Shown here one piece after another: positions 6,112 to 55,632 of a stretch of DNA of 64,000 nucleotides. The DNA is from Anaspis maculata. Taxonomy: Eukaryota; Arthropoda; Insecta; Coleoptera; Scraptiidae. The notes under the pieces were generated by a model that saw nothing but the letters and a program-made list of their open reading frames with translations, ran no database searches and had not been told where the DNA came from. The position numbers and the translations under genes were made by a program. The stretch's first letter is position 1, and each line of letters opens with the position of its first letter. Where the stretch lies: NCBI GenBank assembly GCA_949128115.1, contig OX421962.1:10553262-10617261 (forward strand), in the 5' to 3' direction.

Positions 6112-6234
6112 AATCATAGACCTAAAATCAATAAGTTTAGGTTTTTTTTTTTTTTGTGTTATTGATAAAGGAAGTCAACGTGCTATACAAGACCTCGCTA
6201 GTTACCTATAAACTCTCTTACCCCCACTCTAAAA

Positions 6235-12129: not shown

Positions 12130-12144
12130 GGGGAAAATTTCGGG

Positions 12145-13842: not shown

Positions 13843-13850
13843 GTTATGAC

Positions 13851-14813
13851 TAGAGACCGGATTCTAGGCAAAATGCCTTTTTGTTTCTGTTCTAGACATG
13901 TGTATGAGACCTTGAAATAAATATTAGTCTTGAAAAAACATGGCTTTTGACACCCCTTTGTTTTTGCCTAAATGCCTAAAACTGGCAAAATCGGATTTAC
14001 TGTCCTGAAAAGACCTTTTTAACGGCTTAAAATAGGCTTTTTCAAGTTTTTGGTGGAAATGATCCACAATGTTGAAAAAAAAATCCATTTTTTGATTTGT
14101 TCTATTCAAACTGTGGGAGTAAATTGATTTCAACACTAATATTGATTTATTCACTCCAATTCATTTGAAAATGTATTTGGCCTATATTGCCAATTTAAGG
14201 TCGTTACGGCCTTTTTTAGGCTGTTGCGTGAAGTACAGTTTTTATTCACCTAAACGAGCACTTAAACAATGTGAACATAACGTCTCAGGGCTCGATACCA
14301 AGTTGCAGGCGAGGCGCAAAGTTTGGGATGGCATCACTCGCCAAATACAGCAGTCTGATTGGTTGGTATCCGCCGTTGCTATGGTAACCGCAGTTACAGC
14401 GGTCTCAGCCTCAACTTGGTACTTGTTGCCTGCATCATTTTTCAGCATGAGCTTTCCAAACACCAATTTGTGTCCTCTATATCGGCCATAGTGAAGTTGC
14501 CTATTTTGTAACAATGTACCTAACTACAACAACTAAACTTCTAAATCAACAATGCAACACCGTGACAAAATCTTCCAGGTAGGTACAGTTCGCAAAAATT
14601 CGTGTTTTGTGGACTTGAAACAGTCGGCAAAATTACTATTTCGGGAGACAATACTAAAAAATAAATAATTTGCTTTATTACATGAGAAAACTGTTTTCGG
14701 TCTATTTTGCCTATTTTAGTCGTTACAGCCTAAAGCGTCCTAAAATAGAGCTTTTATTTGCCTAAACATGTGTTCTAATTTCCACTTTTTAACGGCCTAA
14801 AATCCGGTCTCTA
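13851..14813. mobile_element. Non-autonomous hAT-type DNA transposon, 963 bp
   Basis: Inserted in the RT of the Mag-like element. It has perfect 13-bp inverted ends TAGAGACCGGATT and an exact 8-bp duplication GTTATGAC at 13843-13850 and 14814-14821. An 8-bp duplication and a YARNG-type end are hAT hallmarks. Interior copies of GCCTAAAA and GCCTATTTTAG recur near both ends, like subterminal transposase-binding repeats. No transposase frame is present, so it needed help in trans. Confidence 0.92.
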
Positions 14814-16276
14814 GTTATGACATTGAGTTTCTCGAGTCTTTCCAACTCTTGATCCAACTTTTCGCGATAGGCGAACGGAACCTGTCGAGGCCGACAGAAC
14901 ACAGGTCGGGCGTCCGGCTTCAATCGCAACGAAATTCTGGAATACCTAAAACATCCCAACGCATTAGAAAAAACAACAGGAAACTGACGGACCAACTCAT
15001 CGACGATGCCATCGCCATTCCGAGCTACTACCGCGTTGACGGCTTCCAATTTCAATCTGAAGGTTTCAATCCAATCCCGGCCAAGCAACGGAGGACCACC
15101 CCCAGGAACCACACAGAATCTGCACACATTACAAACATTATTGAATTCTACATTCATATTAAAATATCTTTTTGGGATAACACATTCACCAACATAAGTC
15201 TTTAAAGTCATGTAATCCTTCCTCAACCTGTAATTCGCGAACTCTTGAGCGTACATTTTTTCGCTTACACAACTGATGGCGGCGCCAGTGTCAATTTGCA
15301 TTGAGTTCTTCTTTCCACCTACTCCTACAAGGATGGAAAAAGGATTATCTGACTTATTGCTAATTACAAATAAATCGTGATCATCTTGTTTACAATCTTC
15401 TATTTCTGCTTTCGCTTCCACGTTGTTGACTTCTTTTCTTCTTCTCGGACATACACGAGATATGTGACCTTGGAAGCTGCAAGAACTGCATCTATACGCT
15501 TTGTATCGGCATCTTGCATCGCCACCTGGATGGGCGTAACCACATCTGTTACAACTGCTGGTCTGGAACTCATCATCTAGCTGGCGGCCATTTTGTCGTT
15601 GCTGCGGCGGACCTTGCTGGAGTCGCCGATTTTGACCTTTATGACGTTGCGCCAGCGCTTGCTGCTGCGCTGCGCATCGACCATTTGTGCGCACGCATTC
15701 TAGTTTGTTCACGACAACCTGCAAAGATGCTTCTTTTTGTAGCGCTATTTTCAGGAGTTTTTCTAGCGTTTCTTCTGCTTCTTTTTCACACAGCCTGCCC
15801 TGGATTTTTCCTTTTCGCATTCCGACTACAAATTTTTCTCTCAGCATGGAAGTTAAACGCGCGTCAAATTTGCAATTGACCGATCCCTGGCGTACCCTTG
15901 CGTACCATTCGCTTATGGTTTCGTTTGCTTCTTGGGTCAATTCGTGGAATTTTATGCGTTCCATCCATACTGATACTTGCGGTCCAAATTGCGTCATCAA
16001 CAGCTTGCAAAGGTCTTCATAGCTCTTCGTTTTAGGCAAGTCTGGAAAGCAAAGATTGCGCAATACCTGGTAGGCTTCACTGCCGGCTACCGTTAATAAC
16101 GTGGCTACTCTTCGTTCGTCTCTGGTTATGCCATTTGCTTCGAAATACTGGTCTAGACGTTCCATGTAGATAACCCAGTCGTCCTCTTTATGGTTGAACT
16201 CGCTTATATGCCCAATAGTTCCCATAGCCACGACTGTTCTTTCTTCAACGACTTCGACTTCGACTCCGGTAGACAT
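14789..16276 (-). pseudogene. Gag-protease part of Mag-like element
   Basis: 495 codons from ATG 16276. Residues about 20-190 are a retrotransposon capsid-type domain. Two zinc knuckles follow, at C242-C245 to C256 and C263-C266 to C276. The aspartic protease carries DTGA at 329-332 and its second motif LLGRDW near 397-402. The C-terminal 70 residues enter the spacer that leads into RT. The last seven residues and the stop come from the terminal repeat of the inserted hAT-type element, so the polyprotein is cut off at the start of RT. The fused gag and protease in one frame suits Mag-like elements. Confidence 0.88.
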
Positions 16277-32305: not shown

Positions 32306-32811
32306 TTTTATTTAATAGAGTATTATACTTTTGAAAAATTTTCTTTTTTTCGATGGAATCAGAAACTATATTGAAAAATAACTGACCCGTATTTTTTTAT
32401 TCAGCCAAAAATCGTATCGTTTGGCCGCAATAAATGAACGAAATTCCTATATTCTGCCTATTTCTGACGTCATTTTCATAGGCAGTATAGGCGGTGACTC
32501 GCTGTGACGTCAGAACTAGTTGATGTTATTTATTTATTGCGCCCAAACGGTACGATTTTTGACTGAATAAAAAAACACGGGTCAATTATTTTTCATTGTA
32601 GTTTCCATTTCAATAAAAAAATTTTTTTAGTATAATACTCCATTGTCTTATTTTACGAGGCGGCATTCAGCTATAAGCTGCTCTACCATGCAACCTCGGG
32701 GACAGCACAAAATATCCATGGATGAAGTAGGATTCGAACCCACACAGGGCAGCGCGAATGGTTTGGCTTGCCATCACCTGTACCACTCGGCTACCACCGC
32801 TCCTATTTATT
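32270..32811 (-). mobile_element. tRNA-derived SINE with (TAAA)n tail
   Basis: On the minus strand its 5' end is tRNA-like. An A-box-like TAGCCGAGTGGT and a perfect B-box GGTTCGAATCC (plus positions 32730-32740) mark an internal RNA polymerase III promoter. The 3' end is a (TAAA)n tail at about 32270-32310. TTTATT at both sides (32270-32275 and 32806-32811) is the likely target duplication. The cloverleaf cannot close properly, so this is not a functional tRNA gene. Confidence 0.82.
32318..32640. mobile_element. Foldback MITE inside the SINE
   Basis: 323 bp with ends GAGTATTATAC and GTATAATACTC. Long imperfect arms match (AAAATCGTATCGTTTGG against CCAAACGGTACGATTTT). It lies between the SINE body and the SINE tail. 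It may be part of the SINE family itself rather than a later insertion; no target duplication is visible. Confidence 0.7.
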
Positions 32812-33660
32812 CGAAAGTACTGTGTTCCTTTTCCACACTTGGTCACCTACGTTATAATTTGGATCCCGTTTTCTCAAATCGTAACCGTGCTTTTGCTTTG
32901 TCGAAGCCTTTAGCAACCGATCTCTCACTTCGCGATATATTTGAGGGTAGATTACATTTCGTCGATTTTGGTCCACGGTGACATCATCTTGGAGCTCAAT
33001 GCGATCCTCTCCGCTGGACAATTCTCGACCGAAATTCACCATGTAGGGAGTCATTCCGGTAGAGTCGTGTACCTGAGTCCTTATGGCACAAGCGATCTTG
33101 GCTGAATTGCTGTCCCATTTCTTATGATTTTCCTGGACGTAGCATCGCAGCATGGTGCCAATCGTCCGATTGACACGTTCCGTCGGATTGGCCTGCGCGT
33201 GGTAGAATGCCGTAAACGGAATCTCAAACCCATAGGTCGCGGCCAGTTCGGTGAAAACTCGACTCTTGAATTGCACTCCGTTATCGACGATGAGTTTTTT
33301 CGGCACCCCAAAGAACAACAGCAAGCTTTCTTCGATGACTTTACAAACGAAACGAGCCTCTGAAGGAATGATGAGAGGGAACTTAGAAAAGCAGTCCAAT
33401 ATCATCAAGATGAACTTGTGTCCGTTCGTCGAACGAGGAAAAGGACCCATCAAATCGCAAGAAACCACTTTCCACGGAACGTCAGCAATTTCGTTTGGGA
33501 CCATAAACCCTTCAGCGGGTCGCTGAGTTGGCTTGCTTCCACCACACGTGAGACAACGACGTACATAACTAGTGACGTCAGCGCGCAGCTTTGGCCAGAA
33601 GTATCTTTCCGAAATACGTGCGTAGGTACGTTTTGTGGATTCCTGCGTGACCTGCACGGG
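32806..33660 (-). pseudogene. Gypsy integrase fragment
   Basis: In frame from about 33650. It has the zinc-finger cysteines in RRCLTCGG, then the DDE core: Asp in SCDLMGPF, Asp in IVDNGVQF and Glu in NPTERVNRT. A GDQVWKRN motif of the C-terminal domain follows. The frame runs into the SINE at 32805. The tail resumes at 32269 on the far side, in the same frame if the SINE is ignored, so the SINE was a clean insertion into an integrase gene. Confidence 0.87.
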
Positions 33661-34198
33661 CATCGTCGTGACAACGAAATAAGATCCGAGCGCGATCCTC
33701 CTTCGGGACGACCAACTTCCAATTATCGGAATCTTTCGGGACGTACATGACGTTGGGTCGCTGGTCCACATACTTGTAAAGCTTGCCGTCCTGGATTCTC
33801 CACGTTCCGTAGGTTAACGGATCAGCTTCCACTTTTGCCAACATCCTGCGAAACCACGGATCTCTTGGGGTGTCTTCTGGTGGTTGTTGGGGTGCTTCAT
33901 CGACAACATCAATCGGAGCTGGGACGGTTCGAGAGAGAAGATCAGGCACGACGTGTTCGCGGCCCTTGCGATGGGTGATGGTGTAGTCGTACTGTTGCAG
34001 CTTCACGGCCCAACGAGTTAAACGACCAGATGGCTCCTTCAGGCTGCCCAACCAAAGCAGAGAATGGTGGTCCGTGACAGCCGTGAAATGGGCCCCCTCC
34101 ACATATGGGCGCAGCTTCTCAATAGACCACACCACGGCCAAGCACTCTCGCTGCACTGTGCTGTAATTTCGTTCAGCACGGGACAGAGTCCGGTTCAA
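33578..34198 (-). pseudogene. Gypsy RNase H fragment
   Basis: 206 codons. Starts within RNase H at NRTLSRAERNYSTVQREC (the Glu of the active site), continues with VTDHHSLLWL (next Asp) and the conserved end PDLLSR, then the integrase zinc-finger start with HAGIHKTY. Near 33625 an extra four bases shift the frame, so the last 15 residues are out of frame and the true product continues in the next entry. Confidence 0.85.
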
Positions 34199-36859: not shown

Positions 36860-37260
36860 TGGCTTTCGGGGCCCGCTAGATTCTGTACACGACGTCAATA
36901 ATCCTCTTGACTACCGTGTACGGTCCTTTCCACGACAGATGCAACTTTGGAGACCTTCCTTTCTTGCGCTGAGGATTGTACAACCAGACCAGGTCACCTG
37001 CTTGAAATCCCGTGGAGTTCGTCTTTAAGTTGTAACGCGTTTTTAACTCTCCTCGGCTGCGAGTTCTTGGTCCTTGCTGACCGCACAAACCTTGCACTGA
37101 CGACACCATGTTTCCACGTCGTTCCGGTAGTTCACCCAGTAGAACCGCTCGCGCACCTTGTCCAACGTCTTGTTCACCCCAAGGTGCCCCCCAGTGACGC
37201 CATTGTGCATTTTTTCCAGGACCTCCTTCACTCTCTTCTTTGGAAGCACTAATTGAGCCA
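36860..37260 (-). pseudogene. Outer gypsy integrase, core deleted
   Basis: From 37255 leftwards: the integrase zinc finger (HNGVTGGHLG then CRQCKVC), then at about 37045-37060 an abrupt shift to the C-terminal domain (GFQAGDLVWLYNPQRKKGRS, and SWKGPYTVV). The entire catalytic DDE core, normally about 170 residues, is missing and the two parts are out of frame. This proves an internal deletion. Confidence 0.85.
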
Positions 37261-37468
37261 AATTAAATGTTCGTTCACGAGAATCTTCGAAAAAAATGTT
37301 TTTATTCGCAAAAATACAATAATGAATACATGCGAGCTCTAAGCGTGCAATGTCGTAACTGGTGTTCGCTTAGGGCGTTGGAGTCTATATAATGTTAAAA
37401 GAGCTAAGCTAAGCATAATATGTAATAAGCGGTGTAAGCTAAATCCGGAGGAAAACTGGGATATAATT
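37261..37468 (-). repeat. Errantivirus 3' LTR
   Basis: AATTAAATGTTCG...GGGATATAATT. One substitution (CTTCG against CTTCA) in 208 compared with the 5' LTR. AATT-type ends rather than TG...CA are usual for errantiviruses. A purine-rich TGGAGG precedes it on the minus strand as polypurine tract. Confidence 0.93.
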
Positions 37469-37502
37469 CCTCCAGGGCGAGTGTGAGGCTCCGACGAACT
37501 TT

Positions 37503-39107
37503 TCAGAATTTCGCCATATTCGGGAAATGCTGGTCTTCAGGGACGCGTTCTTGTTCTGTTGTCGGTGCATCCGACGTTGTCATCTTCTTCTGTCTCTTCT
37601 TAATCACACGATATGTGATTATGCAGGCTGCAGTTATTATTATCAGATAGACTATGATAATAGATGACGTGTGGAAATGTGATGTCGTGGGTACAGCCTG
37701 GACGGGGGTCAGCGGCTGGATGTTGGTCTCCAGTTTCTTGAGGGTCAAATGCTTGATCTTCAGCTCGGGTAGTTTTGACTGTTCTTGTTTCTTGAAGTCG
37801 AAGTCGAAGTCTTGTAGGTGGAGTGGTTGGCCACTGCTTTCATCGTTGAAAATCAAGGGTCTCCCTTGAATGAAGATGGTACAAGACGAATTCTCGAACA
37901 GGAATGTTCCGGTCTTCTTGCGGGTGTTCCAAGACTCGGCACAATGTTCTTTGACGAGCTCTTATTTGACGAAGGTCCCGAGGTAGCTTTGTAGTTCGGG
38001 TATGAACTCTAAGGCGTTTTCTTCGAGGTGTAGTTTTTGGTAGGAACAAGTCGAAAAGTCGTTTTCGAGTAGAATGTTGCGTTCGCAAGTGTTGTTGGCG
38101 AGCGATATCAGGCTCCGTTGGCATTGATAGATACCGTTCAGCAAGACACAGTTGTCTACTAAGGGCAGTAACTCTGATCCTTTTTTTAGACCGAATTTCG
38201 AAGAAGGTATAATCGTATACGAGTGTTCGTTAGGCAAAGGCAGAAAGTAGTATAATTCGTAATAATTTGGATTCAGCAAGGGGATTGGCATAAAGAAAAT
38301 TATTTGTTTTCCTTTAATGGCACACCTAGGCTTTATTAGGGATTCGTAGTTATGAATTTGAGACAAAGTTACTGGAAAAGGTAATTGGTTTCCATAAAAT
38401 TCGGAAATTCTATTGAGTTCTTTTAAAAGTTCTTCACTTGTTACTATGCTGGGGTGTAAAATATTCAACTTACAAAATGTTATTGAATTCTCTGTATCTT
38501 GAAGGATATGTAGAATTATATTAAAAAAGTTTATTAATTGATTGATTATGTCTTTTGCGAACAGTATGTCAGTATGGGTTATGGTTGTCGTCATTAGTGA
38601 TTCTAATTGTTTTATTCGAGAGACCATAAGTAGTTCGTTATGTTCGATGTCCTGTATGGTTTTATTGAAATTTTCTCTAATTTCCTTATTGATAGAATAT
38701 TGTTGGTTGATTTGGTTTATAATCGAATTTTGATTTTGTTGTAAGTCATTAATGACTGCATCAAAATGTTTGCCATCTTCGGCATCTAAATTGCCTGAAA
38801 TTTGTTTAATGATAGAACCTAATCCATCGATTAGTCCTCGTTTCTTTCTTGGTAGTTTTTGAAATGGTCTTAATTTTTCGTCTATTAGATTTTTGTAATA
38901 TTGGACAATATTATTGTAATTTCCTAATTCGCGTTCGTACACTTGATTTGTTTTAGTCAAGTTTGATACCGTGAGGTATTGATTTTTTAGTCTTTCGTAT
39001 TCGTTGATTAGGTTAGTTAAGTCGTAATAATGTATGAACGTGTGAGTAGAGGTTTGAAGTCTTGCGGGTCCCGTTTTTATTGGTAGTATTCCGGGGTTGT
39101 TTGTCAA
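37503..39107 (-). pseudogene. env: Errantivirus envelope glycoprotein gene, one in-frame stop
   Basis: Envelope gene, homologous to baculovirus F-type fusion proteins (family knowledge). Frame is continuous for about 535 codons apart from TAA at 37962-37964. The first part (381 codons) carries a furin-like site RKKR at residues 87-90 and then a hydrophobic Gly-rich fusion-peptide-like stretch starting at residue 91, coiled-coil-like Gln/Asn-rich sequence, and Cys pairs later. After the stop, the second part has a single membrane anchor (IIIVYLIIITAACIITY) and a short basic cytoplasmic tail. The open frame begins without ATG and without a signal peptide. The env message of errantiviruses is spliced, so the N-terminus may come from a 5' exon; an AG at the pol end (about 39123) could be the acceptor. 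This copy would give a protein cut off before its membrane anchor. Confidence 0.85.
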
Positions 39108-39124
39108 ATCTTTGTAACATTGTC

Positions 39125-42100
39125 CTAGTCCGAAGTGGATGGACCTGGAATAGGAGGTGTTGTTTTAGTAGGGCGTTTGATATTGGAAATATGTAGTTTG
39201 TGAAATTTACGTCCAGTTTTATTGGACAAAACTCTGGGTTTTATGGTTTTCCTAATGGGATTTACACTGATGATTTTTTCTGGTTTAAATCGATTACGAA
39301 GTTTCGATCTGAAATTGCTTTTTACGAAAACTTCTTTTGGTAAAGTGGGAATTTCTTCTCTATTTTCGTTTGCTTTAGAAATGACTTTCTCTTTTTTATT
39401 TGAAATATTAGCATTGACGATTTTATACAAAACTGACAATTTGTTTTTGTGGTTTTGAACGTAGTTGTTTGCCATTTGTTTTTCTATGTCTAGATCAATG
39501 GTTTGCTTTGGATCCGGGTGACCGTTTAAAATTTCGAATGGGGTCATCTTAGTGACTGAATGAGTAGAGTTATTATATGCTATCAGGGCATATTTGAATT
39601 TAGTGTTGATATCATCCCTTTTGAAATCAGGTTGATTATTTATCAAGTTGACGTGTTCTAAAATAGTGGAATGAAATCTCTCAATTATTCCGTTACTTTC
39701 TGGGTGATGGGGTGAACAAAAATGGACTTTGATTTTGTGAAGATTTAGGAAATCTTTCACTAGACCGTTGTCAAATTCTGAACCGTTATCGGTGATCAAT
39801 ATTTCGGGTACCGAATGGTGTGAAAAGTATTGCAACAGATTTTCGGCAATTTCTGAAGCTTGGGTGCTAGATAGCATGTATGCCTGAGCGTATTTGCTGA
39901 AGGCGTCAATGATTGTCAAAAATTTGGAAGTATTATAAGTTAGAACGTCGATGTGGATAATCTCGAATGGTTTCACCGGCGTGGGAGTAATGTTGTATTT
40001 TATTTTCAAGGGTTTTCTGTCATACTTGACGACTTTACAGATTTCACATTGATTAATGAAATTTTGAATAGTTTTCATTTGATTTGGCCAATAGTATTTT
40101 TTGGATAGTTTTGAATGGGTTTCGGTCATGCCACGATGATTGGTTTTACCTTCGTGGTAGCCTTTTACAATGTTTATCTGTTCATCGAGGGTTTCGATGT
40201 CTATTAAAGTTTTGGTGCATTTCTTGAATTTGAAGGAATCATTGAAATGAAGCTGTACGACATTACTGAATTGTTCGTACATTTTATCGTTTGAAAAGGT
40301 GACACTGTAATTGACATTGGGGACAATATATTCTTTTAGAAATTCTTTGATTTCCTCTTCGTGATCCTTTTCTGAAATTTGGACTGTGTATCTGATTTTT
40401 GAATTCTCAAATAATCTGATCACTGTCGGGGGTAATGGGTTCATTTTAACTGAAATGAATTCGATTTGGTTTTTCCCAAAATTTATGGGGTCTTCTGAAA
40501 TCGGAATTTCAGCGACTGGGTTTTCAAAATTGGAGTGCACGGTTACGTCGTCAGGGATTATGTCTGGAGTGTCGTCAGGGGGATCGTCAATGGGATCGTC
40601 AGGAATATCGGTCCTGTCGTCACCGAGCTCGACAATCATTGACTGACTGTCGATTGGTGGTTTTGTGTTTAAATCTTCCATAAACTCGAAGAAAGGGTTA
40701 TTTTCTTCGGTTTCTTCGGGAATCTCATTATTCAAAATGTAAATAAAGACGTCCATTTTTGCGCCTTTGAAAACTGATATTATCATTGGGAACACTTCTT
40801 CCCAATTTAGTCCATCCAAACCGCATCCTAACTTTGGTATGGCTAAATTTCTGACACTATGTCTCAAGCAAATTTGTTTTAAAGCAATTAAAGAATTTTT
40901 TAGGTCTTCGTAAGTGGGCTTGTCATAAAAGTTTTTCTTTGTTATTAAATAGTAGATATATCTGTCCAATAGTTTCAGGGAAGCCACATCTCCTACTGTT
41001 TTATGCTGACTGACAAGTGTTAGGACGTTGCCGAATTTTTCTTTAAAAGTCCTGGCTATGCCAGAATTCATGATTAAGTCTTCTGAGACACAGTGCGCCA
41101 GGGAGAAGTCCTCTGGGGCTTCAAATAAATCGGCATTTAATATGTGGACATTGCTGAATTCTGTTTCTGTCAACAGATTTAGGTTGGGAACCCGCGAAAG
41201 GGCATCAGCGTTGGAATTTAATTTCCCTTTTTTATAGACTACTTCGTAGTCGTATTCCTCCAGCTTCAGTCGCCAACGCACTAATTTTGAATTAGGCTCT
41301 TTGAGTGACATTATCCACTGAAGGGGCTTATGGTCGCTGATGACTTTAAATTTTCGGCCAAATAAGTAATGCCTGAACATTTTGGTTCCATAGACTACGG
41401 CAAGTAGCTCCTTTTCTATGGTCGAATAATTGATTTCGTGGGCATTAAGGGTTCTTGATGCGTATGCAATTGGTAGGTCCGACCCTATTGGACCTTGGGA
41501 TAAAACTGCGCCTATAGCGTAGTTGCTTGCATCGCAGGAAAGTAAAAATGGGGATTCAAAATTTGGGTATTGGAACAATGGCTCATTTGTTAAAAGTGTT
41601 TTACATAGGTTAAAACATTTGGAGTAATCTTCGTCCTTGACGTTGATTTCTGTATCTTTCTTTAATCGTGACGTAAGTGGTTTTGTAATTTTTGCAAAGC
41701 CTTTGATAAATTTCCGGTAATATCCAACTAGTCCCAAAAATCCCTTTAGTTGTTTTTTGGTTGTTGGAATTGGAAAATTTTCAATTGCCGAAATTTTGTC
41801 TGGATTTGGTTTAATACCTTGTGGAGTGACGACATGTCCTAGGTATTGGACCTCTTTTTTGAGAAACTCTGATTTGTCCAGCTGGATTTTCAAATGGGCT
41901 CTTCTGAGCCTTTCGAAGACTTCCCGGAGTCTGACAATATGCTCTGGGAGTGAAGTACTGAATATTATTATGTCGTCCAGATAAACAAAGCAGGTTTCAT
42001 TCTGAATACCTCTCAAAATGTTGTCCATAGCGCGCTGGAACGATGAGGGCGCGTTTTTTAACCCGAAGGGCATACGTCTAAATTGGTAATGGCCATTGTC

Positions 42101-43300
42101 CACGCTTAAAGCAGTTTTTTCGACGTCGCTAGGGTCCATTTCGAGCTGGTGAAAACCACTAGCCAGGTCGATACATGAAAAATATTGACTTCGGCCCAAT
42201 TTGTCCAATATATCAGAAATATTTGGCAAAGGGTACCGATCATCTACAGTATTTTCATTTAATTTCCTGTAGTCTATGACTAGACGCCATTTTCGTTTAT
42301 TTGTTGCATCCAATTTTTTTGGAACGACCCAAATTGGTGCATTGAAGGGTGAATTTGAATGTTCAATAATTCCTTGGTCAAGCATGTCTGAAATTTGTTT
42401 ATTAACTTCCTCCTTATGCACGTAAGGGTAGCGATAACTCTTCGTGTATATGGGTTTATCGTCTTTCAGTTTTATAGTATGCTTGGCGGAATTTGTGAAA
42501 GTCAATTTCTGATCTGGGAAATGAAAAATGTCTTTATATTCCACTAAGAGTTTGGTTATCTCTCTTTTCTCTTCTTCGTTCATGTGTTCGGTTCTGACTT
42601 TGGACAAGTCGAAGCTAAACTTCTCGCAATCAAAGCTGTTTAGATTTCCGAAATCATCGGTTTCAGATTCCGAGACCTCAATGGCTTCAAAAGCTTGTGA
42701 TTGGTTGAAAGAAATTTCGCTTTCTGTCGCATTCAAAACGGAACAGATGGTTTCGTAATTCTTAATTTTAACCAAGCTCTCAGGGATTTCTAGATTTGAG
42801 AATTTTTGGTATGGCAAAATTCCAATACCATTGGAGATATTTTTTATGTTGAGTTTTACAATTTTCTGTGTACGTGGTTCGATCGTATGAAAATTGTTAC
42901 ACTCGTTCACAATATTTTCGTGATGCAATTTGATTTTTGTTTTGGGAGTCGTGAGCTCCCCTTTGCTCGCGTCAATAACTGCTCCTAATGCTTTGAGGAT
43001 GTCCCATCCTAGGAGACAGTCGAAATATTGATGAAATTTAAATAAATAAAATTTGACGGTTGTGTCCGATTTAAAAATTTCAGGAGTTTTGATTATCATG
43101 CTGAAATTTTCCTGCGTCGTGCCATGGGCGGTTTTTATTTTCAGTGGGTCCCTTTTAATGTTTCTGGGGAAGTGTTTTTCCGCAATTTCGGGGCTTACGA
43201 AGCTCTTCGTGGCCCCAGTATCGACTAGACATCGCAAAGTAAAATTTTTATAGGGTATAAGGATATAGGGTAAGGAAGACTTTTCGTGGTCCAATGTCAA
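39125..43300 (-). CDS. pol: Errantivirus Pol with inserted macrodomain
   Basis: Uninterrupted 1391-codon frame. Protease: DTGA at 27-30. RT about 270-500: YLDD at 440-443. RNase H 585-705: D590 (SCDAS), E in STIEKELL near 630, D656 (ISDHK), ending ADALSRV. Macrodomain about 715-858. Acidic Asp/Pro linker 862-945. Integrase: zinc finger H1049-H1055-C1085-C1088, then DD35E core D1118, D1171, E1207, all present. A basic tail closes the frame, ending 18 bases before the open env frame. Pol sits -1 relative to gag; a T TTT TTA slippery heptamer 37-43 bases before the gag stop would give a Gag-Pol fusion. The frame opens from TTG, which fits expression by frameshifting rather than separate initiation. 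All enzymatic residues are intact. Confidence 0.95.
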   Translation of the reverse strand: MTLDHEKSSLPYILIPYKNFTLRCLVDTGATKSFVSPEIAEKHFPRNIKRDPLKIKTAHGTTQENFSMIIKTPEIFKSDTTVKFYLFKFHQYFDCLLGWDILKALGAVIDASKGELTTPKTKIKLHHENIVNECNNFHTIEPRTQKIVKLNIKNISNGIGILPYQKFSNLEIPESLVKIKNYETICSVLNATESEISFNQSQAFEAIEVSESETDDFGNLNSFDCEKFSFDLSKVRTEHMNEEEKREITKLLVEYKDIFHFPDQKLTFTNSAKHTIKLKDDKPIYTKSYRYPYVHKEEVNKQISDMLDQGIIEHSNSPFNAPIWVVPKKLDATNKRKWRLVIDYRKLNENTVDDRYPLPNISDILDKLGRSQYFSCIDLASGFHQLEMDPSDVEKTALSVDNGHYQFRRMPFGLKNAPSSFQRAMDNILRGIQNETCFVYLDDIIIFSTSLPEHIVRLREVFERLRRAHLKIQLDKSEFLKKEVQYLGHVVTPQGIKPNPDKISAIENFPIPTTKKQLKGFLGLVGYYRKFIKGFAKITKPLTSRLKKDTEINVKDEDYSKCFNLCKTLLTNEPLFQYPNFESPFLLSCDASNYAIGAVLSQGPIGSDLPIAYASRTLNAHEINYSTIEKELLAVVYGTKMFRHYLFGRKFKVISDHKPLQWIMSLKEPNSKLVRWRLKLEEYDYEVVYKKGKLNSNADALSRVPNLNLLTETEFSNVHILNADLFEAPEDFSLAHCVSEDLIMNSGIARTFKEKFGNVLTLVSQHKTVGDVASLKLLDRYIYYLITKKNFYDKPTYEDLKNSLIALKQICLRHSVRNLAIPKLGCGLDGLNWEEVFPMIISVFKGAKMDVFIYILNNEIPEETEENNPFFEFMEDLNTKPPIDSQSMIVELGDDRTDIPDDPIDDPPDDTPDIIPDDVTVHSNFENPVAEIPISEDPINFGKNQIEFISVKMNPLPPTVIRLFENSKIRYTVQISEKDHEEEIKEFLKEYIVPNVNYSVTFSNDKMYEQFSNVVQLHFNDSFKFKKCTKTLIDIETLDEQINIVKGYHEGKTNHRGMTETHSKLSKKYYWPNQMKTIQNFINQCEICKVVKYDRKPLKIKYNITPTPVKPFEIIHIDVLTYNTSKFLTIIDAFSKYAQAYMLSSTQASEIAENLLQYFSHHSVPEILITDNGSEFDNGLVKDFLNLHKIKVHFCSPHHPESNGIIERFHSTILEHVNLINNQPDFKRDDINTKFKYALIAYNNSTHSVTKMTPFEILNGHPDPKQTIDLDIEKQMANNYVQNHKNKLSVLYKIVNANISNKKEKVISKANENREEIPTLPKEVFVKSNFRSKLRNRFKPEKIISVNPIRKTIKPRVLSNKTGRKFHKLHISNIKRPTKTTPPIPGPSTSD
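40721..41158 (-). other. TARG1/OARD1-type macrodomain inside Pol
   Basis: Residues about 715-860 of Pol. It opens with a beta-strand like that of macrodomains (VHILNADLFEAP), then SLAHCVSEDLIMNSGIAR, the ADP-ribose-binding loop of the TARG1 class, then YIYYLITKKNFYDKPTYEDL and IPKLGCGLDGLNWEEV. In human TARG1, Lys84 (in ITKK) attacks ADP-ribosyl-glutamate and Asp125 (in GCGLD) completes hydrolysis; the matching residues here are K788 (40937-40939) and D829 (40814-40816). The fold is therefore likely active on ADP-ribosylated substrates. It lies where standard gypsy Pol has only a short spacer, after the RNase H end and before an acidic linker to integrase. Assignment comes from motif recognition, without a search. 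Confidence 0.9.
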
Positions 43301-44566
43301 TAATTCAACGATTGGTGATTCGAGGCTTGTTCCTCTAAAAAATGGTTTCGTCCGTCCTGCACTGTATTTTCGGCAGAGGGCTCGATTACATTCTCTGGAG
43401 GATTTCCTTCTTCTATATTGTGGTGAGTTATAAATGGCTTATTTTTATATTTTTGAAAATTGTTATTATTTATCGTTGAGGTTGACATGGGTACCGGTTT
43501 GTTTGCTGGTACATAATTTGGGTTTGGTTGAAACGCGTTATATGGTTTCGGATTTTGATATTGTTGCCTTTGCGTTGTCTGATAATTTTGAAATTGTTTA
43601 TTTGGGTACTGAAATTGGGGATTTTTCCCGAACCTTGGCGGGTATCGTGCTTGATAGGGAGCCGCTGGCACGACGGGGTTTGTTTTTTGATTTACTTGAA
43701 AATCATTGGTTAAAATACTTAGCGCTTCTTGAAGCGTCGCCGGATTGCGCGTGGTGATATAGTCACCGACTGGTTTATTTAAATATTTAAGGAACACCCT
43801 AAGCCCTAAATCCTAAATCTGTGGCATTTTCTATCAGGTGAACTTTTTTGTCGTTTGGAAAATGATTTGTGCAATAGGCTATTTGTAAATTTAAGTTTTT
43901 TTGTATAGCGTTAAAGAATTCAATAGCCGACATACGAGCTTGTCTGAGTTCGCACAACTCCAACGTTAATGACTGCAGGTCGCGCTTATCTGCATAAGTT
44001 GCTAACAAGGCGGATTTTAAGTCCAGCCAACAATCTATTGTGTAGGTTGAGATATCGCTTTTCGCTTTACCTGTAACTTTGTTTTTCAAACAATTTAGGA
44101 TGTATTTGTTCTGAAAATCATCCGGATTTTGATTGTTATAAAAACTTACAATTATATCTTCTGCGAGGCGTAAATAATCGCCTAATAAAGCCTGGTCTCC
44201 TGTAAACTCAGGGACCATATTAAGGTAGGCATCTTTAAAAATTTGTGGCACAACATTCGGAGGGTTCCCAAGGGGTACTTGCTGCATTACTTGTTGTACC
44301 GTGGGAGCTGCTCCTGTTGCCATGTTTGCTAGAATTTCGGCTGTGCGTAATTCTATTTCGTGATTTCTATGAGGGGACCGTGATCTAAACCTTCTGCCTT
44401 GACCCAAACCTAACAAGCGGAGGGACAAGATAGCGTCTTCGACCTTCGCGTCTAAATTCTCCTCTGAATCTGAATCTGAACCGGAGTTACGGCCGCTTAC
44501 CCCCGGTTGCAAGAAACTAAAATTTGCTCCGTCGCAAATTAGCTTCGGTACCAAACTCGGTATCAA
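43297..44566 (-). pseudogene. gag: Errantivirus gag, one frameshift
   Basis: Two adjoining frames make one gag. The N-terminal part, 44566-43799 (255 codons), has a Ser/Asp-rich start, an Arg/Ser-rich patch (RRFRSRSPHR) and a capsid-type domain ending near ENATDLGFR. The C-terminal part, 43797-43297 (166 codons), continues with KYLNKPVG and a Pro/Gln/Asn-rich tail. At the junction (about 43797-43806) an extra 7 bases, GCTTAGG, look like a slip-duplication and place a TAG. There is no CCHC knuckle, as in other errantiviruses. The N-terminal frame lacks an ATG at its opening; the first in-frame ATG is at residue 82, so the true start is unclear. Confidence 0.82.
43336..43342 (-). promoter_or_regulatory. 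-1 ribosomal frameshift slippery site
   Basis: Minus strand T TTT TTA in the gag frame, the canonical X XXY YYZ pattern. After a -1 slip the Pol frame is open from here through the protease. The gag stop is at 43297-43299. A downstream pseudoknot or stem was not modelled. Confidence 0.7.
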
Positions 44567-44828
44567 ATGGTAGGCTATTTGTAGGCGTAAAAAAAGGAGT
44601 GTCTAGGGTGACGACTGACATAATATGTCAAACAAAAAATTGAATGAAATATGGGAATGGAAAGCTGAGCTGATATTGTGAGTGAGAAAAGCACTGGTGT
44701 GCCTAATTCAAACCGAGTATACGTTGGGGTTTACATTTTGTGCTCATAAATAGAGAATTTTGGCTGATGGGTGCAGGCAATCAGTTATACAGGTTTGTTT
44801 GTATGAGGACATTTGAAACAGTTGAAGT

Positions 44829-45113
44829 CTAGCTGTCAAGAGTCACGCAAATTTGAAGAGTGAAAATGGTGCGCGGAAAGAAATACACCGAAGAAGATAG
44901 CTCTAGGTCTTCAACTCCGATGAGATCCACGATCCGCAACACATTGTCCTTCGTGAACCTATATCGCTCCTTAAATTCCTTGTCGTTGTAAAACTCGAAG
45001 AGGTTTTTCCGCTCAGCATTTACACGACGAACTGCACCTGCAACGTCTTGCTCTTCTTCAGAAGAGGAAAATTCGGAGACTTCAGAAAATTCTGAAAGCG
45101 CCGAGTCAGACAT
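44829..45113 (-). pseudogene. Harbinger-transposase-like N-terminal fragment
   Basis: 94 codons from ATG. After a Ser/Glu-rich start it has NLFEFYNDKEFKERYRFTK and then DNVLRIVDLIG, matching the helical region that precedes the nuclease of HARBI1/Harbinger transposases (pattern F-x-x-R-[YF]-R-[FLM]-[ST]-K-x-x-x...L). The nuclease itself is absent, and the last 20 codons are unrelated. A second, weaker copy lies 0.9 kb away. Confidence 0.6.
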
Positions 45114-45954
45114 TTTAGATACGCATACAGCGTGACATATTGTGACGGCCCGGTCAACAACAAACCGTCCACCACACGTTTCGATCCGGTTAACTCTTTA
45201 TTGCAGTTGCCGAGTCGTGTGTCGTGTTGGGACCTGATGGGCAAGGGACCTAAACTACCTAAATGTGCACATCTAAGGGTTAGGGCAAGAGACAATAAGA
45301 CAAGAGAAAAGAGGCAGCCATTTTCAGTGTGTGAGGTCTATTTTTGTACCAAAGAAAAACTTGACAAATCCAGAATTCAGTTTCATTCCTTTCTCTCAAT
45401 TTCTTTGCTGTTGCTCATGCCAACGACTCCTGCAGTATTTCCTGTCGTCAAAAGCTGTTCTGGAGCTACTGAATCAGCACTGGATATCACCTTGACACAT
45501 GCTTGATACCGTGTCACTAGCGGCCCAAAATTGTTCAAGTTTCGTCACGGGATCACAGTCCCAGTACTCCTGTAACTCATCGTTGTCACCGAAGCACTCA
45601 TACTTTGACTGAGCAATACTTTGCAATAAAGAGCTCCGCGTTCTTGGTGTAAACAACAGCTTTGTTTCCGCCGTACAGGTACAGGGCTCGTGGAGGCACC
45701 CAGCAAGTGTTCGCAATTTCAGTCGGTAACTCCCATCGCCTGAACCTGGAATTGTTGATCGACATAATAGCATTTACGGAGGCAGTTTGTCATATTCACC
45801 TGATCGACAGCCTGTGCATGGATTTATGCCTCAATTCGGCACAATGATTTGCATATTATTCTTCAAAACTCGAAGAAATAAATGATGCTGTTAACCTCTG
45901 AAATTCCTGACGCTTCTTTGACTTTGACAGCTCGCGACGCGAGGTAGGTACATC

Positions 45955-46194
45955 TTATCTACGAGACGGTTTTTTTTGATCGGCAATGACACAACGAACT
46001 GCATCGTCTACTTCTTGTTCTTCTTCAGAAGAATAAAAATCGGAGACGTTGGAAAATTCAAAATAAAGTGTCGAATCAGACCTTTTAGCGCTTTTAGGTA
46101 CGTGCATACGCATAAAAAGATGCAAGTAGTTCAAATGCGTGATAACCTTAGCCACAGCCTGTTTGCTACCTCGTTTGATACCCTGTTCCTGCAA
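45955..46194 (-). pseudogene. Second Harbinger-like N-terminal fragment
   Basis: 79 codons. Shares with the copy at 44829-45113 the acidic block around SSEEEQEVDDAVRCV and the DNA around it (TCTTGTTCTTCTTCAGAAGA). Its 3' part is missing. Two diverged copies in one leader imply a duplication or two captures. Confidence 0.5.
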
Positions 46195-46532
46195 CCCGAT
46201 TCAATTTGCTACGTCGCAAAATTTGCTACCACGTTCCTGCAACCGGGCATTAGAGACATAAAGTGTACTTACAGCGTGATCAGGTATATCGCTGCTGTGG
46301 ACATCGGTTCGATTTGGTTTGTAGTCGTGTTGATCTCGGACTTGTTGTTCGGAACTTTGGTGTGGAAGGCCTCAATTATTACGATTGGATCCACACTCGA
46401 AAGTTCGTCACTATTTCTTTGTAGGTTGTAGGTTCGTCTGTCGGTTTAAGGCATAAAAATGCTCCGTGTCTTAGGGCGTTTTTTGGAACTTAGACGCACT
46501 ATTTTAGAACACGTTTTTGACAGAGTGATTCT

Positions 46533-46550
46533 ACCAGAAGTACTGCGCCA
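46533..46550 (-). promoter_or_regulatory. Errantivirus primer-binding site
   Basis: TGGCGCAGTACTTCTGG on the minus strand, overlapping the last base of the 5' LTR. TGGCGCAGT starts the primer site of several known gypsy/17.6-type elements. Confidence 0.75.
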
Positions 46551-46757
46551 ATTAAATGTTCGTTCACGAGAATCTTCAAAAAAAATGTTTTTATTCGCAA
46601 AAATACAATAATGAATACATGCGAGCTCTAAGCGTGCAATGTCGTAACTGGTGTTCGCTTAGGGCGTTGGAGTCTATATAATGTTAAAAGAGCTAAGCTA
46701 AGCATAATATGTAATAAGCGGTGTAAGCTAAATCCGGAGGAAAACTGGGATATAATT
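46550..46757 (-). repeat. Errantivirus 5' LTR
   Basis: Partner of 37261-37468. Followed outside by GCCA (46758-46761), matching GCCA at 37257-37260. Confidence 0.93.
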
Positions 46758-47302
46758 GCCATCTCTTTCTTCCCATCGGGACTCTCCTAGACTCTCTTCA
46801 GCAACCCGTTCTCTATTCTCAGAGAATTCCACCGAGCCCAAAAAGCCTTGAAGTGGGGCCCTTCACCAGATATCTCGGCCCATTCTGGTCTTTCCTGGCC
46901 AAGTTCTTTTCTTTAAGCAAGCAAACCGATGGCTGGGTCCTTACGCTGCTCTTTCTTGAGCTCAGCCGTAGTCCAATTTCTCGGGGTTTCAAAGACAAGT
47001 GCTTTGATTTCGACGTTCCCATTCTGCTGGTCTACCCTCTTGTCGTGCCTCCAGTCCTCGGTGCGTGGTCTTCGAGAAAGACCATCTGTGTTGCCATTAT
47101 CATGACTCCTTCCAGGACGATGTTCACTTCCTTGATCAGCAGCTCCCCGTTCCAGCCTGGAGCGATCTGCTGAACGGTACGGTTGCCAGCAATCACGCTG
47201 CAGATGGCCATTCTTTCCACAGTTGGAGCAACGCAGCCTTCCTCCTGTGCGATTGCTTTCTTTCGACTGATGACCTCCTCGATCAGCAGCTTCCCGTTCC
47301 AA
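46758..47302 (-). pseudogene. Outer gypsy: last zinc knuckle joined to RNase H end
   Basis: From 47302: the third zinc knuckle CSNCGKNGHLQRDC, then after about 30 residues DGLSRRPRTEDWRHDKRVDQ, the phrase that follows RNase H in this gypsy group, then WTTAELKKEQRKDPAIG. Protease, RT and most of RNase H, normally about 900 residues, are missing between them. Stops interrupt the frame before 46819. The errantivirus breaks the sequence at 46758. Confidence 0.78.
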
Positions 47303-53464: not shown

Positions 53465-55632
53465 ATACAATACAATACAATCTTTATTCAGCGCAAGAAG
53501 ACCTTACAAGGTATATCGCTAAGTCATTTTTAACAAAATACATGAGTACGATAAGACACACTTTGTAACACTCAAGTATGTACAAGTAGAACACTACAAC
53601 AAACAACGAATAATAAATTCACATGTACTTCAAAAAAAGTGAAGTCATTGCACAAGATGGAGTCAAAATACAAAATTCAAAAATTCATTGACAGAATAAA
53701 AACATTTTTCAATCAACATGGTCTTTACGGCTCTTCTGAAGGTTTGATACGCGACCATGCTCTTATATTCCTGAGGGAGATGATTATAAAGCCTGAGAGA
53801 GCTGACAATGGGCCCCCTCGCGACCTGCGTCAAGGCAAACCTGGGAATTACCAGCTTATCAGCATTTCTCGTCCGATAGCGGCTCACCTCACCCTGTCGC
53901 TGGAAGCGTCCAACATTTCTCCTTACAAAACAGACACATTCGAGAATGTAACAACAATATACATTGAGGATGCCATACTCCACAAAATATGGCCTACATG
54001 AAGTTCTACAAGGAAGTGACAGCATGCACCTGATTATTCTTTTCTGGGCAACAAAAACTCTCCGGACACCAGAAGAACCTCCCCAGCACAATATGCCATA
54101 TGTCAGCAGAGAATGAACGGAGGAACAGTAAAACATCCTTAAATGACCGAGAGAAATTACACCCCTCAACTGAATTACCATGAAACACATAACCCCGAGA
54201 CTCCTGGCCACCCTCCCCGTGTGCTCCACCCAGGAAAGACCGGAGTCCAATTCTACTCCAAGGAACCTTACCTTTTGACTTTGCTTGACGCTCTTTGCTC
54301 CCAGTCTCACTAATAAGCTACAGTCTGAGCGGCCGCCCAACGGCGTGAAGGCTATCATCTCAGTTTTGCCGGAATTGGCAATTACACCGTTGTCCGCAAA
54401 CCAGGATAAAATCCTGTTTGCACTTGTAGTTGCATTAAACGCCACAGCGTCGTTATTTTCACCGCGTACAACCATGGATGAGTCATCGGCAAAGAGCGTA
54501 ATTGACTCATCAGTGATCAGATCGTTCACAAAAATTACAAAAAGAAGAGGACCCAGAATACTTCCCTGGGGGACACCAGTCGCTACACTTCTCGCCCCCG
54601 ACAAATACTTGCCATCCTCCCGCATAATTCGCACCACCTGACTTCGTTCCGACAAGTAGGATCTCAGCCACCGCCAAGGTGACCCCCTTACCCCATACGA
54701 ATAAAGCTTATCGAGCAACAAAGCATGGTTGACAGAGTCGAAGGCCCGCGACAAGTCGAAAAACACTCCCACTGACTTATATCTCTTATTGAAACTATCC
54801 AGTACCTTCTCGCAAATAGCCAAGATCGCGTCCTGAGTACACCTCCCCTTCAAGAACCCGTACTGCTGTGACGACAGCAATTTATTGTCATGAAGAAACG
54901 ATAGCAAGCGGGCGCTGAAGGCTTTCTCGAATACCTTCGATATCGCCGGTAACAACGCTACAGGCCGATAGTTACTGACGTCACTCGGGTCTCCCTTTTT
55001 CAAAATCGGCACAATTATCGCTTTTTTTAACTGAGCTGGAAACCTTCCGACTTCAAAAGTTCTGTTGATTAGGTGAGACAGAGGTGAAGATAACTCTCGA
55101 GCCACACGCTTCATGATAAAGCATGGGACATCATCCACACCTGCTGACTTTTTATTCGCTAGCTTACTGATTATATCAAAAATTTCCTCACTGGAGCTTT
55201 CAAACAAGAACATGGAAGATGGATTCTGTTTGATGTCACAAGACTTATTGACGGTCAGTCCCCCGATTAGGTCCTTCACACTGTCAACAAAATAATCATT
55301 AAACATGTCCGCTACACGGTGGCCATCCCTTTCCTCCCTCCCCTCACCTAACCTGAACGAAGATGGAAGGTCGGCCGTAGATTTTTTTCCTGCATTAGTT
55401 TTTATTACTTTCCAAGCTGTTTTAGTTTTGTCGTCAGAACCCGCTATTTGATTTCCATAATAAATTTGCCTTGATTTCTGTATATTCAGTTCGTGAGCTT
55501 TTTTCAATTTGTTATACAAGAGACCGAAATCCGGATCGTCACAATTAGCTCGACCCTTGTGCATCTCCCTGACCAGTCTGCCCACCTCTCTTAACTTATC
55601 AGTGATCCATACCTATACCTATACCTATACCT
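53465..55632 (-). mobile_element. 5'-truncated Jockey/CR1-like LINE
   Basis: Minus-strand LINE keeping RT and 3' UTR. The 3' end is a (TTGTA)n tail (plus: ATACAATACAATACAATC, 53465-53488). The 5' end is cut within ORF2 at about 55605, with a CTATAC microsatellite at 55608-55632. The endonuclease and ORF1 are gone, as in normal 5' truncation. Confidence 0.85.
53663..55585 (-). CDS. LINE reverse transcriptase, truncated ORF2
   Basis: 640 codons, open throughout; the frame also extends a few codons upstream of the first Met. RT palm: FFDLSRAFDSV (first Asp at 277), GVPQGSILGPLLF at about 338-350, and FADD at 365-368, where YADD is more common. The usual thumb region follows. The C-terminal phrase LYNHLPQEYKSM...CFYSVNEFL is shared with the fragment at 49166. 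No RNase H, which fits Jockey/CR1-type elements. It cannot retrotranspose because the endonuclease is absent, although the RT has no stop. Confidence 0.9.
   Translation of the reverse strand: MGRLVREMHKGRANCDDPDFGLLYNKLKKAHELNIQKSRQIYYGNQIAGSDDKTKTAWKVIKTNAGKKSTADLPSSFRLGEGREERDGHRVADMFNDYFVDSVKDLIGGLTVNKSCDIKQNPSSMFLFESSSEEIFDIISKLANKKSAGVDDVPCFIMKRVARELSSPLSHLINRTFEVGRFPAQLKKAIIVPILKKGDPSDVSNYRPVALLPAISKVFEKAFSARLLSFLHDNKLLSSQQYGFLKGRCTQDAILAICEKVLDSFNKRYKSVGVFFDLSRAFDSVNHALLLDKLYSYGVRGSPWRWLRSYLSERSQVVRIMREDGKYLSGARSVATGVPQGSILGPLLFVIFVNDLITDESITLFADDSSMVVRGENNDAVAFNATTSANRILSWFADNGVIANSGKTEMIAFTPLGGRSDCSLLVRLGAKSVKQSQKVRFLGVELDSGLSWVEHTGRVARSLGVMCFMVIQLRGVISLGHLRMFYCSSVHSLLTYGILCWGGSSGVRRVFVAQKRIIRCMLSLPCRTSCRPYFVEYGILNVYCCYILECVCFVRRNVGRFQRQGEVSRYRTRNADKLVIPRFALTQVARGPIVSSLRLYNHLPQEYKSMVAYQTFRRAVKTMLIEKCFYSVNEFLNFVF

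What the first reader, a model, noticed from the sequence alone, without database searches (positions are those of the whole stretch)
40721..41158. A TARG1-type macrodomain is built into the Pol of a recently inserted errantivirus
Standard errantivirus Pol is protease-RT-RNase H-integrase. Here about 145 residues between RNase H and integrase match the TARG1/OARD1 macrodomain, with the class-specific SLAHCVSED loop, ITKK (catalytic Lys, K788) and GCGLD (catalytic Asp, D829). TARG1 removes ADP-ribose from glutamate and makes a lysyl intermediate (established). Viral macrodomains of alphaviruses and coronaviruses counter ADP-ribosylation-based defence (established). A retroelement with one could be countering host PARPs, or acting on ADP-ribose made during DNA repair at integration (inference). 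The frame is uninterrupted in a young copy, so the domain is not decaying faster than the enzymes beside it.
Basis: partly seen in the sequence, partly recalled or inferred. Interest (0 to 1): 0.92.

Follow-up and report, generated by a model that had tools for sequence, protein, structure and literature searches.

The report
ADP-ribose-removing enzyme inside insect retroelements
A young virus-like jumping gene in what looks like an insect genome carries, between its copying and inserting enzymes, a well-kept copy of the animal enzyme TARG1 that strips ADP-ribose tags, and the same enzyme turns up at several other places in other jumping genes, which hints at a contest with the host's tagging system.

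Summary
Confirmed, and wider than reported. The Pol ORF (minus strand, 39125-43300) of a complete LTR element (37261-46757; LTRs differ at 1 of 208 sites; 4-bp duplication) holds a TARG1-class macrodomain between RNase H and integrase: human TARG1 E=1.5e-40, AlphaFold pLDDT 94.9, TM 0.93-0.98 to TARG1 crystals, catalytic Lys and Asp kept. Of 84 RNase H copies of this family, 83 have it. Variants shared by copies show purifying selection (dN/dS about 0.12; second family 0.28). Relatives without it exist in the same genome and are 116 of the 120 best-scoring Pols examined. In 17 of 17 retroelement macrodomains compared Lys and Asp are kept, yet the domain sits at six places in Pol (before protease, protease-RT, two sites in the RNase H-integrase linker, beside the integrase zinc finger, after integrase) and, in one more family, in ORF1 of a non-LTR element. 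Best reading: an active ADP-ribosyl hydrolase, recruited repeatedly, probably to undo host PARP marks; activity and substrate are inferred. Macro-domain genes in fish retroviruses are prior art.

The parts
37257..37260 (.). target-site duplication GCCA, left
37261..37468 (-). 3' LTR (element on minus strand), 208 bp
   Evidence: 1 mismatch to the other LTR
37962..39107 (-). env-like ORF, 381 aa
   Evidence: Baculo_F 1.9e-15
39125..43300 (-). pol ORF, 1391 aa from the first listed start (1437 codons stop to stop, 39125-43438)
42974..43240 (-). aspartic protease
   Evidence: PF13975 2.1e-7 and PF00077 3.5e-4, Pol residues 21-109
41831..42319 (-). reverse transcriptase
   Evidence: PF00078 3.7e-38, residues 328-490
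41252..41632 (-). RNase H
   Evidence: PF17917/PF17919, residues 557-683
40727..41158 (-). TARG1-type macrodomain, Pol residues 715-858
   Evidence: PF01661 6.2e-6; human TARG1 1.5e-40; model pLDDT 94.9; TM 0.93-0.98 to TARG1 crystals
40937..40939 (-). codon of Lys 788 (TARG1 Lys84 position)
   Evidence: conserved 17 of 17
40814..40816 (-). codon of Asp 829 (TARG1 residue 125 position)
   Evidence: conserved 17 of 17
40667..40693 (-). short linker motif FFEFMEDLN, Pol residues 870-878, after the macrodomain here but before it in family B
40451..40666 (-). acidic linker, variable in length among copies
   Evidence: sequence; insertions or deletions in 20 of 41 well-covered copies over residues 859-950
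40025..40177 (-). integrase zinc-binding H2C2
   Evidence: PF17921, residues 1042-1092
39701..39973 (-). integrase core
   Evidence: PF00665 1e-11, residues 1110-1200
43297..43812 (-). short ORF between gag and pol, no Pfam match
43799..44602 (-). gag-like ORF, 267 codons
   Evidence: Retrotrans_gag 0.0062, below cut-off
46550..46757 (-). 5' LTR, 208 bp
46758..46761 (.). target-site duplication GCCA, right

Best explanation
The segment is a captured TARG1-class (ALC1-like) macrodomain, translated as part of Pol. It most likely works as TARG1 does: Lys 788 attacks C1'' of ADP-ribose joined to Asp/Glu (or to a nucleic-acid phosphate) and Asp 829 assists, releasing mono-ADP-ribose or whole chains. 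By erasing marks that host PARPs put on the element's proteins, nucleic-acid intermediates or chromatin, it shields the element from a host restriction or damage response. Shown: homology, predicted fold, conserved dyad, clean absence in a close relative, purifying selection, repeated occurrence at different sites. Inferred: catalytic activity, packaging with Pol, substrate, benefit to the element.
For: TARG1 as top match in sequence and fold; Lys/Asp in 17 of 17 retroelement macrodomains though other parts of the loop vary; selection on variants shared by copies, family A 5 non-synonymous to 11 synonymous (p=4e-5) and family B 15 to 15 (p=6e-4); A versus B pS 0.87 (saturated) with pN 0.30, like integrase 0.31; six sites in Pol and one in a non-LTR ORF1, so the enzyme rather than a position seems selected; close structural match in Kadipiro virus VP8 (46% identity, TM 0.96) and weaker ones among other viruses, iridescent viruses of invertebrates included; 16 PARP matches in the genome; in Drosophila parp-1 nulls 5 of 8 significantly changed mobile elements are up, springer of the gypsy clade about 2500-fold (PMC7712786, passages); TARG1 chemistry and its action on nucleic-acid ends (PMC7050489, passages).
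Against: No activity was measured. The macrodomain is less constrained than RT and integrase (0.12 against 0.00 and 0.06 in A; 0.28 against 0.08 and 0.09 in B). Phosphate-loop residues G111 and C112, invariant over the 63 rows of A1, are changed in family B, P0003, P0011 and P0017 and in the non-LTR copy (sequence). Most related elements examined do without it: 116 of 120. Copies used for dN/dS were found through a macro match, which hides badly damaged ones, and the ratios are not tree-based. In the Drosophila study 3 of the 8 elements are down, ten further increases are statistically weak, and its authors allow an indirect effect. Chikungunya macrodomain mutants replicated unaffected in mosquito cells, with mixed effects in live Aedes (PMC12632316, abstract).
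Confidence: 0.6

Rival explanations
1. Integration helper: the domain removes ADP-ribose that PARP1 writes at the nicks and gaps made by integrase, or from DNA ends, so that repair of the new insertion proceeds.
For: It sits between RNase H and integrase in the window family; TARG1 removes Asp/Glu-linked ADP-ribose and acts in the DNA damage response (PMC10933786, abstract) and on nucleic-acid ends (PMC7050489, passages).
Against: P0010 has it before the protease and P0017 between protease and RT; a non-LTR element has it; the closest viral structural match is in an RNA virus.
Confidence: 0.2
2. One reading: the macrodomain binds ADP-ribose on damaged or active chromatin and steers where the element integrates, as chromodomains do in chromoviruses (recalled).
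For: Near integrase in A and B; P0005 is listed with both a chromodomain and a macrodomain.
Against: A reader would not need the catalytic Lys, which is kept in 17 of 17; the sites of the domain vary widely.
Confidence: 0.12
3. Hitch-hiking cargo without function, or a chimeric reading frame.
For: Retroelements can pick up host transcripts (recalled); only 4 of 120 Pols examined carry it.
Confidence: 0.03
4. One ancient gain in the ancestor of these elements, then many losses and shifts of position, rather than repeated capture.
For: A single clade of the non-fish retroelement macrodomains is not rejected (14 rows, AU p=0.233); A, B and P0003 macrodomains are sisters (100/99); A+B+P0003 as one RT clade is not rejected (p=0.19).
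Against: Insertion points differ: after the linker motif in B and P0140, before it in A and P0003; carriers are scattered on the RT tree (one clade of 7 rejected, p=0.00014); the Danio-type macrodomains fall with vertebrate TARG1 (97/89, 82/75, 83/77).
Confidence: 0.3

Closest known systems
Human TARG1/OARD1/C6orf130 (ALC1-like macrodomain hydrolase)
   Same: Sequence (50% identity in the structural alignment), fold, catalytic Lys and Asp
   Different: Here a segment of a retroelement Pol, not a free protein; a probable exon of the host's own TARG1 gene is separate and more distant (C5:69433486-69433797)
Fish endogenous retroviruses with macro-domain genes (Basta et al. 2009, cited in PMC4977317; one passage read, original not held)
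   Same: A macrodomain carried by a retroelement; P0013 (Danio aesculapii) and its tree neighbours P0012, P0015, P0016 may be of that kind (second RNase H domain in P0012 and P0013)
   Different: In those four the domain lies after integrase and falls with vertebrate TARG1; here errantivirus-type Pol with the domain between RNase H and integrase
Viral macrodomains of alphaviruses and coronaviruses
   Same: Same fold, ADP-ribose binding or removal, counter-defence role in vertebrates
   Different: 14-18% identity in the structural alignments listed; no TARG1-type Lys/Asp dyad (recalled)
Kadipiro virus VP8
   Same: TARG1-like fold at 46% identity, TM 0.96
   Different: Part of an RNA virus protein, no reverse transcription (recalled)
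Orchid Ty3/Gypsy elements with an AlkB-type m6A demethylase domain (PMC9289625; listing, passages)
   Same: Ty3 element that captured an enzyme which removes a chemical mark
   Different: Plant, additional ORF, different enzyme
dUTPase between RNase H and integrase in non-primate lentiviruses (recalled, no call)
   Same: An accessory enzyme in the same slot of Pol
   Different: Unrelated enzyme and viruses

Membership tests
TARG1 (ALC1-like) macrodomain hydrolases | best sequence match to TARG1 rather than to other macrodomains | tested here: met
   1.5e-40 against 2e-6 for the next sequence outside TARG1
TARG1 (ALC1-like) macrodomain hydrolases | fold | tested here: met
   predicted model, TM 0.94/0.98 and 0.8 A to 4j5s chain C
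TARG1 (ALC1-like) macrodomain hydrolases | catalytic Lys84 and residue 125 | tested here: met
TARG1 (ALC1-like) macrodomain hydrolases | GCG phosphate loop before the Asp | tested here: inconclusive
   kept in the window, changed in family B, P0003, P0011, P0017
TARG1 (ALC1-like) macrodomain hydrolases | hydrolysis of ADP-ribosyl-Glu/Asp | not testable with these tools
   needs an assay
Errantivirus-type Ty3 elements | LTRs, short target duplication, PR-RT-RH-IN order | tested here: met
Errantivirus-type Ty3 elements | env of the Baculo_F kind | tested here: met
   1.9e-15
Errantivirus-type Ty3 elements | RT placed among reference errantiviruses in a tree | not tested
   no reference set was loaded; nearest named relative by identity is annotated transposon 297, Tribolium
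   macrodomain present; RNase H-H2C2 gap 359 in the sister P0003 against a median of 201 over 117 Pols
MacroD-type viral macrodomains (alphavirus, coronavirus; class recalled) | closest relationship to that class | tested here: not met
   far below TARG1 and DarG

The most novel reading that the evidence does not exclude
TARG1-type hydrolases are a recurrent anti-PARP module of animal retroelements. In this one genome at least four separate placements exist (two sites in Ty3 Pol linkers, one at the N-terminus of another LTR-type Pol, one in ORF1 of a non-LTR element) beside a clustered set of PARP-like genes, so that ADP-ribosylation would be a front in the conflict between an insect genome and its retroelements, comparable with PARP/macrodomain conflicts of vertebrates and RNA viruses.
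Probability: 0.42. Interest if true: 0.92.

Novelty: new variant of a known kind. Interest (0 to 1): 0.82.

Why it matters
Fixation of an extra conserved domain is called rare in LTR elements (abstract start of PMC9289625, listing), so an enzyme that is kept under selection and appears at many different sites points to a strong, shared pressure. If the domain is active, it says that insects restrict or respond to retroelements through ADP-ribosylation, a defence known mainly from vertebrates (recalled), and gives an enzyme with which to find the marked substrate. Macro-domain genes in fish retroviruses are already reported. In nine literature searches no listed title or abstract start, nor the passages I read, named a TARG1-type domain in Ty3/errantivirus Pol or in a non-LTR ORF1; the lists were capped (20 of 27, 20 of 368, 30 of 879), and subscription papers are mostly not held.

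Tried and rejected
Chimera or one-off: rejected by the copy counts. Recent capture of this host's own TARG1 gene: the host exon L172 is nearest Hermetia TARG1 by path; one clade of A, P0003 and host is rejected (AU p=5.5e-5) and of A, B, P0003 and host weakly (p=0.04). One clade of all retroelement macrodomains: p=0.036 with 55 rows, 0.085 with 37 rows, after leaving out P0017 and P0016 and some cellular and phage rows and adding P0140 and P0236; so independent capture by the Danio-type elements is likely, not proven. Host species: not identified; the named near relatives are beetles (Tribolium, Callosobruchus, Rhynchophorus, a record named after Psylliodes) and bugs (Clastoptera, Diaphorina). 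A fold of the RNase H-macro-integrase stretch was prepared and not run. A scan of IMG/VR gave 127 stretches that encode a relative, 80 kept; 6 were used as tree rows and none was examined in context. Macro hits L001 and L002 are not TARG1-like. Several far carriers score below Pfam's Macro cut-off (P0008, P0012, P0017, P0236) and P0013 is not matched by that model at 0.01; their assignment rests.

One search scored 7942 candidates, reported 6989 and listed 120; one search examined those 120, some truncated or only 38-44% identical. In one search, 150 of 5039 RNase H candidates were scored, and the macro list is 150 of 496 candidates, so absence in the 22 of 66 non-A rows without a macro match is sure only for the three looked at (L169-L171).

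Full report
What is there. The finding lies in a complete LTR element on the minus strand, 37261-46757, with 208-bp LTRs that differ at one site and the duplication GCCA at both ends. Its Pol ORF (39125-43300) reads protease, RT, RNase H, macrodomain, acidic linker, H2C2 zinc finger, integrase; an env-like ORF with a Baculo_F match follows. The gag region is spread over two short ORFs (43799-44602 and 43297-43812); whether that is damage or design was not settled.

Identity of the segment. It matches human TARG1 at E=1.5e-40 and Pfam Macro above cut-off. The AlphaFold2 model made from a 63-row alignment has pLDDT 94.9 and pTM 0.90 and overlays TARG1 crystal structures at TM 0.93-0.98 and 0.8-1.2 A, with DarG next at 25-26% identity and alphavirus macrodomains at 14-17%. 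Lys 788 and Asp 829 correspond to the TARG1 dyad; the mechanism is described in PMC7050489 (passages, where residue 125 is written Glu). So this is the TARG1 class, not that of alphavirus and coronavirus macrodomains.

Kept by selection. In the same genome a search with the segment listed 150 matches of 496 candidates, 15 of them, the window's included, in open frames of 1437 codons. Of 84 RNase H copies of this family 83 have a macro match within 3 kb downstream (the script counted 81, two more have a truncated match that its filter missed, one has none). A second family, B (38 loci), has it too. Variants shared by two or more copies, which should mostly predate insertion, are 5 non-synonymous to 11 synonymous in family A (dN/dS about 0.12, p=4e-5) and 15 to 15 in B (0.28, p=6e-4). 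For comparison RT gives 0.00 and 0.08, RNase H 0.04 and 0.30, integrase 0.06 and 0.09; variants seen once give 0.37 (A) and 0.60 (B) for the macrodomain and 0.44 and 0.56 for RT. Between A and B synonymous sites are saturated (pS 0.87) while pN is 0.30, like integrase at 0.31. These copies were found through a macro match, which biases against damaged ones, and no tree was used. The domain is under constraint, though less than RT and integrase.

A clean insert. Locus L169 in the same genome is a relative with RNase H 71% and integrase core 67-78% identical to A but no macrodomain: its sequence passes from the residue matching Pol 711 straight to that matching 864. L170 and L171, about 1.8 kb each from RNase H onwards, show none either. 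Of the 120 listed best-scoring Pols by RT-RNase H, 4 carry it (P0003, P0140, P0236, P0243; the last two from Rhynchophorus ferrugineus, P0243 cut off within the domain), and the RNase H-zinc finger distance is 359, 370 and 414 residues in the three measurable carriers against a median of 201 over 117.

Recruited more than once. A search with the macrodomain found fifteen Pol-type proteins with a TARG1-like segment. Mapping puts it between RNase H and integrase in P0003, P0004, P0006, P0007, P0009 and P0011; after integrase in P0005, P0008 and P0012-P0016; N-terminal to RT in P0010 and P0017, before the protease in P0010 and after it in P0017, whose macro match is the weakest. Within the linker the sites differ as well: a motif common in relatives without the domain (FFEFMEDLN in the window) follows the macrodomain in A and P0003 but precedes it in B and P0140, and in P0009 and P0011 the macrodomain abuts the zinc finger; in P0004, P0006, P0007 and P0236 I could not place the motif (read by eye). 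On the RT tree seven errantivirus-like carriers are not one clade (AU p=0.00014), while A, B and P0003 alone could be (p=0.19). On the macrodomain trees A, B and P0003 are sisters (100/99), Danio-type elements fall with vertebrate TARG1, one origin for all is borderline (p=0.036 and 0.085), and one origin for the non-fish set is not rejected (p=0.233). The data favour several gains or exchanges without fixing the number. In 17 of 17 of these macrodomains Lys and Asp are kept.

Beyond this element. A search with a fly TARG1 (P0115, Hermetia) found further carriers in the genome (150 of 513 candidates scored). Family D: eight listed matches, grouped by identity (45-48%) and frame length; one copy was read. 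There the domain lies inside an ORF with C-terminal zinc knuckles (L173; TARG1 E=3.2e-26) and 0.4 kb beyond that ORF an endonuclease of the non-LTR kind begins to match (L176, 4.1e-15): a non-LTR element with a TARG1 domain in ORF1. Three of the eight lie within about 21 kb of a contig end, two of them at the same end. Family E: ten listed matches in frames of 1341 codons; in the copy looked at, the domain starts at most 57 open codons into the frame and an RT segment lies about 1.2 kb beyond it (L175, 2.3e-13). A probable exon of the host's own TARG1 gene is at C5:69433486-69433797. The genome also shows 16 PARP catalytic-domain matches (two of them neighbours on C3, probably exons of one gene), seven at C4:72.20-72.50 Mb; their intactness was not examined.

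How it most likely works. An active hydrolase made with Pol, removing host-written ADP-ribose. Because the domain also occurs away from integrase, in a non-LTR element, and with a close structural match in Kadipiro virus VP8 (insect dsRNA virus, recalled), a function tied only to integration is less likely than general erasure of PARP marks. Drosophila gives a reason for such marks to matter: without PARP-1 five of eight significantly changed mobile elements are up, springer about 2500-fold, three are down, and the effect may be indirect, as the authors note (PMC7712786, passages). Against a simple counter-defence story stands the report that chikungunya macrodomain mutants replicated unaffected in mosquito cells (PMC12632316, abstract).

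Known or new. Macro-domain ORFs in fish retroviruses are mentioned in PMC4977317 (one passage, citing Basta 2009, which is not held). Enzyme capture by Ty3 elements is known from orchids (PMC9289625, passages), and accessory domains such as chromodomains from other LTR elements (PMC6338049, passages). A TARG1-type domain in errantivirus-type Pol, at several sites, and in a non-LTR ORF1 did not show in the nine searches named in Why it matters. I file it as a new variant of a known kind.

Noticed in passing
L173 (G000:C7:62946700-62948700) and L176: Non-LTR retrotransposon whose ORF1 carries a TARG1-like macrodomain upstream of zinc knuckles; eight matches listed, three within about 21 kb of a contig end, which may mean a telomere-near element (a tankyrase link is speculation).
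   Followed up: partly
G000:C1:125492578 and other copies, L174, L175: Another family with an RT and a macrodomain at the N-terminus of a 1341-codon frame; ten such matches.
   Followed up: partly
G000:C4:72198149-72498837 and elsewhere: 16 PARP catalytic-domain matches in the genome, seven in a 0.3-Mb cluster; many for an insect if Drosophila is the yardstick (recalled).
   Followed up: no
window 44603-46549: 1.9-kb leader between 5' LTR and gag; the longer ORFs tested have no match over cut-off, and about 118 bp recur at 76% identity.
   Followed up: partly
window 4957-9975; 11212-16276; 32803-34198; 53663-55585: Other retroelement pieces: a non-LTR EN-RT-RNase H ORF with an ORF carrying zinc knuckles before it, a gypsy-type element in several pieces, an integrase fragment, an RT fragment.
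   Followed up: no
L009-L088 (IMG/VR): TARG1-like macrodomain stretches in 80 kept viral contigs, many over 50 kb; contexts not read.
   Followed up: no
P0204: A Pol of this insect group is filed under a Wolbachia endosymbiont of Psylliodes, probably host contamination.
   Followed up: no
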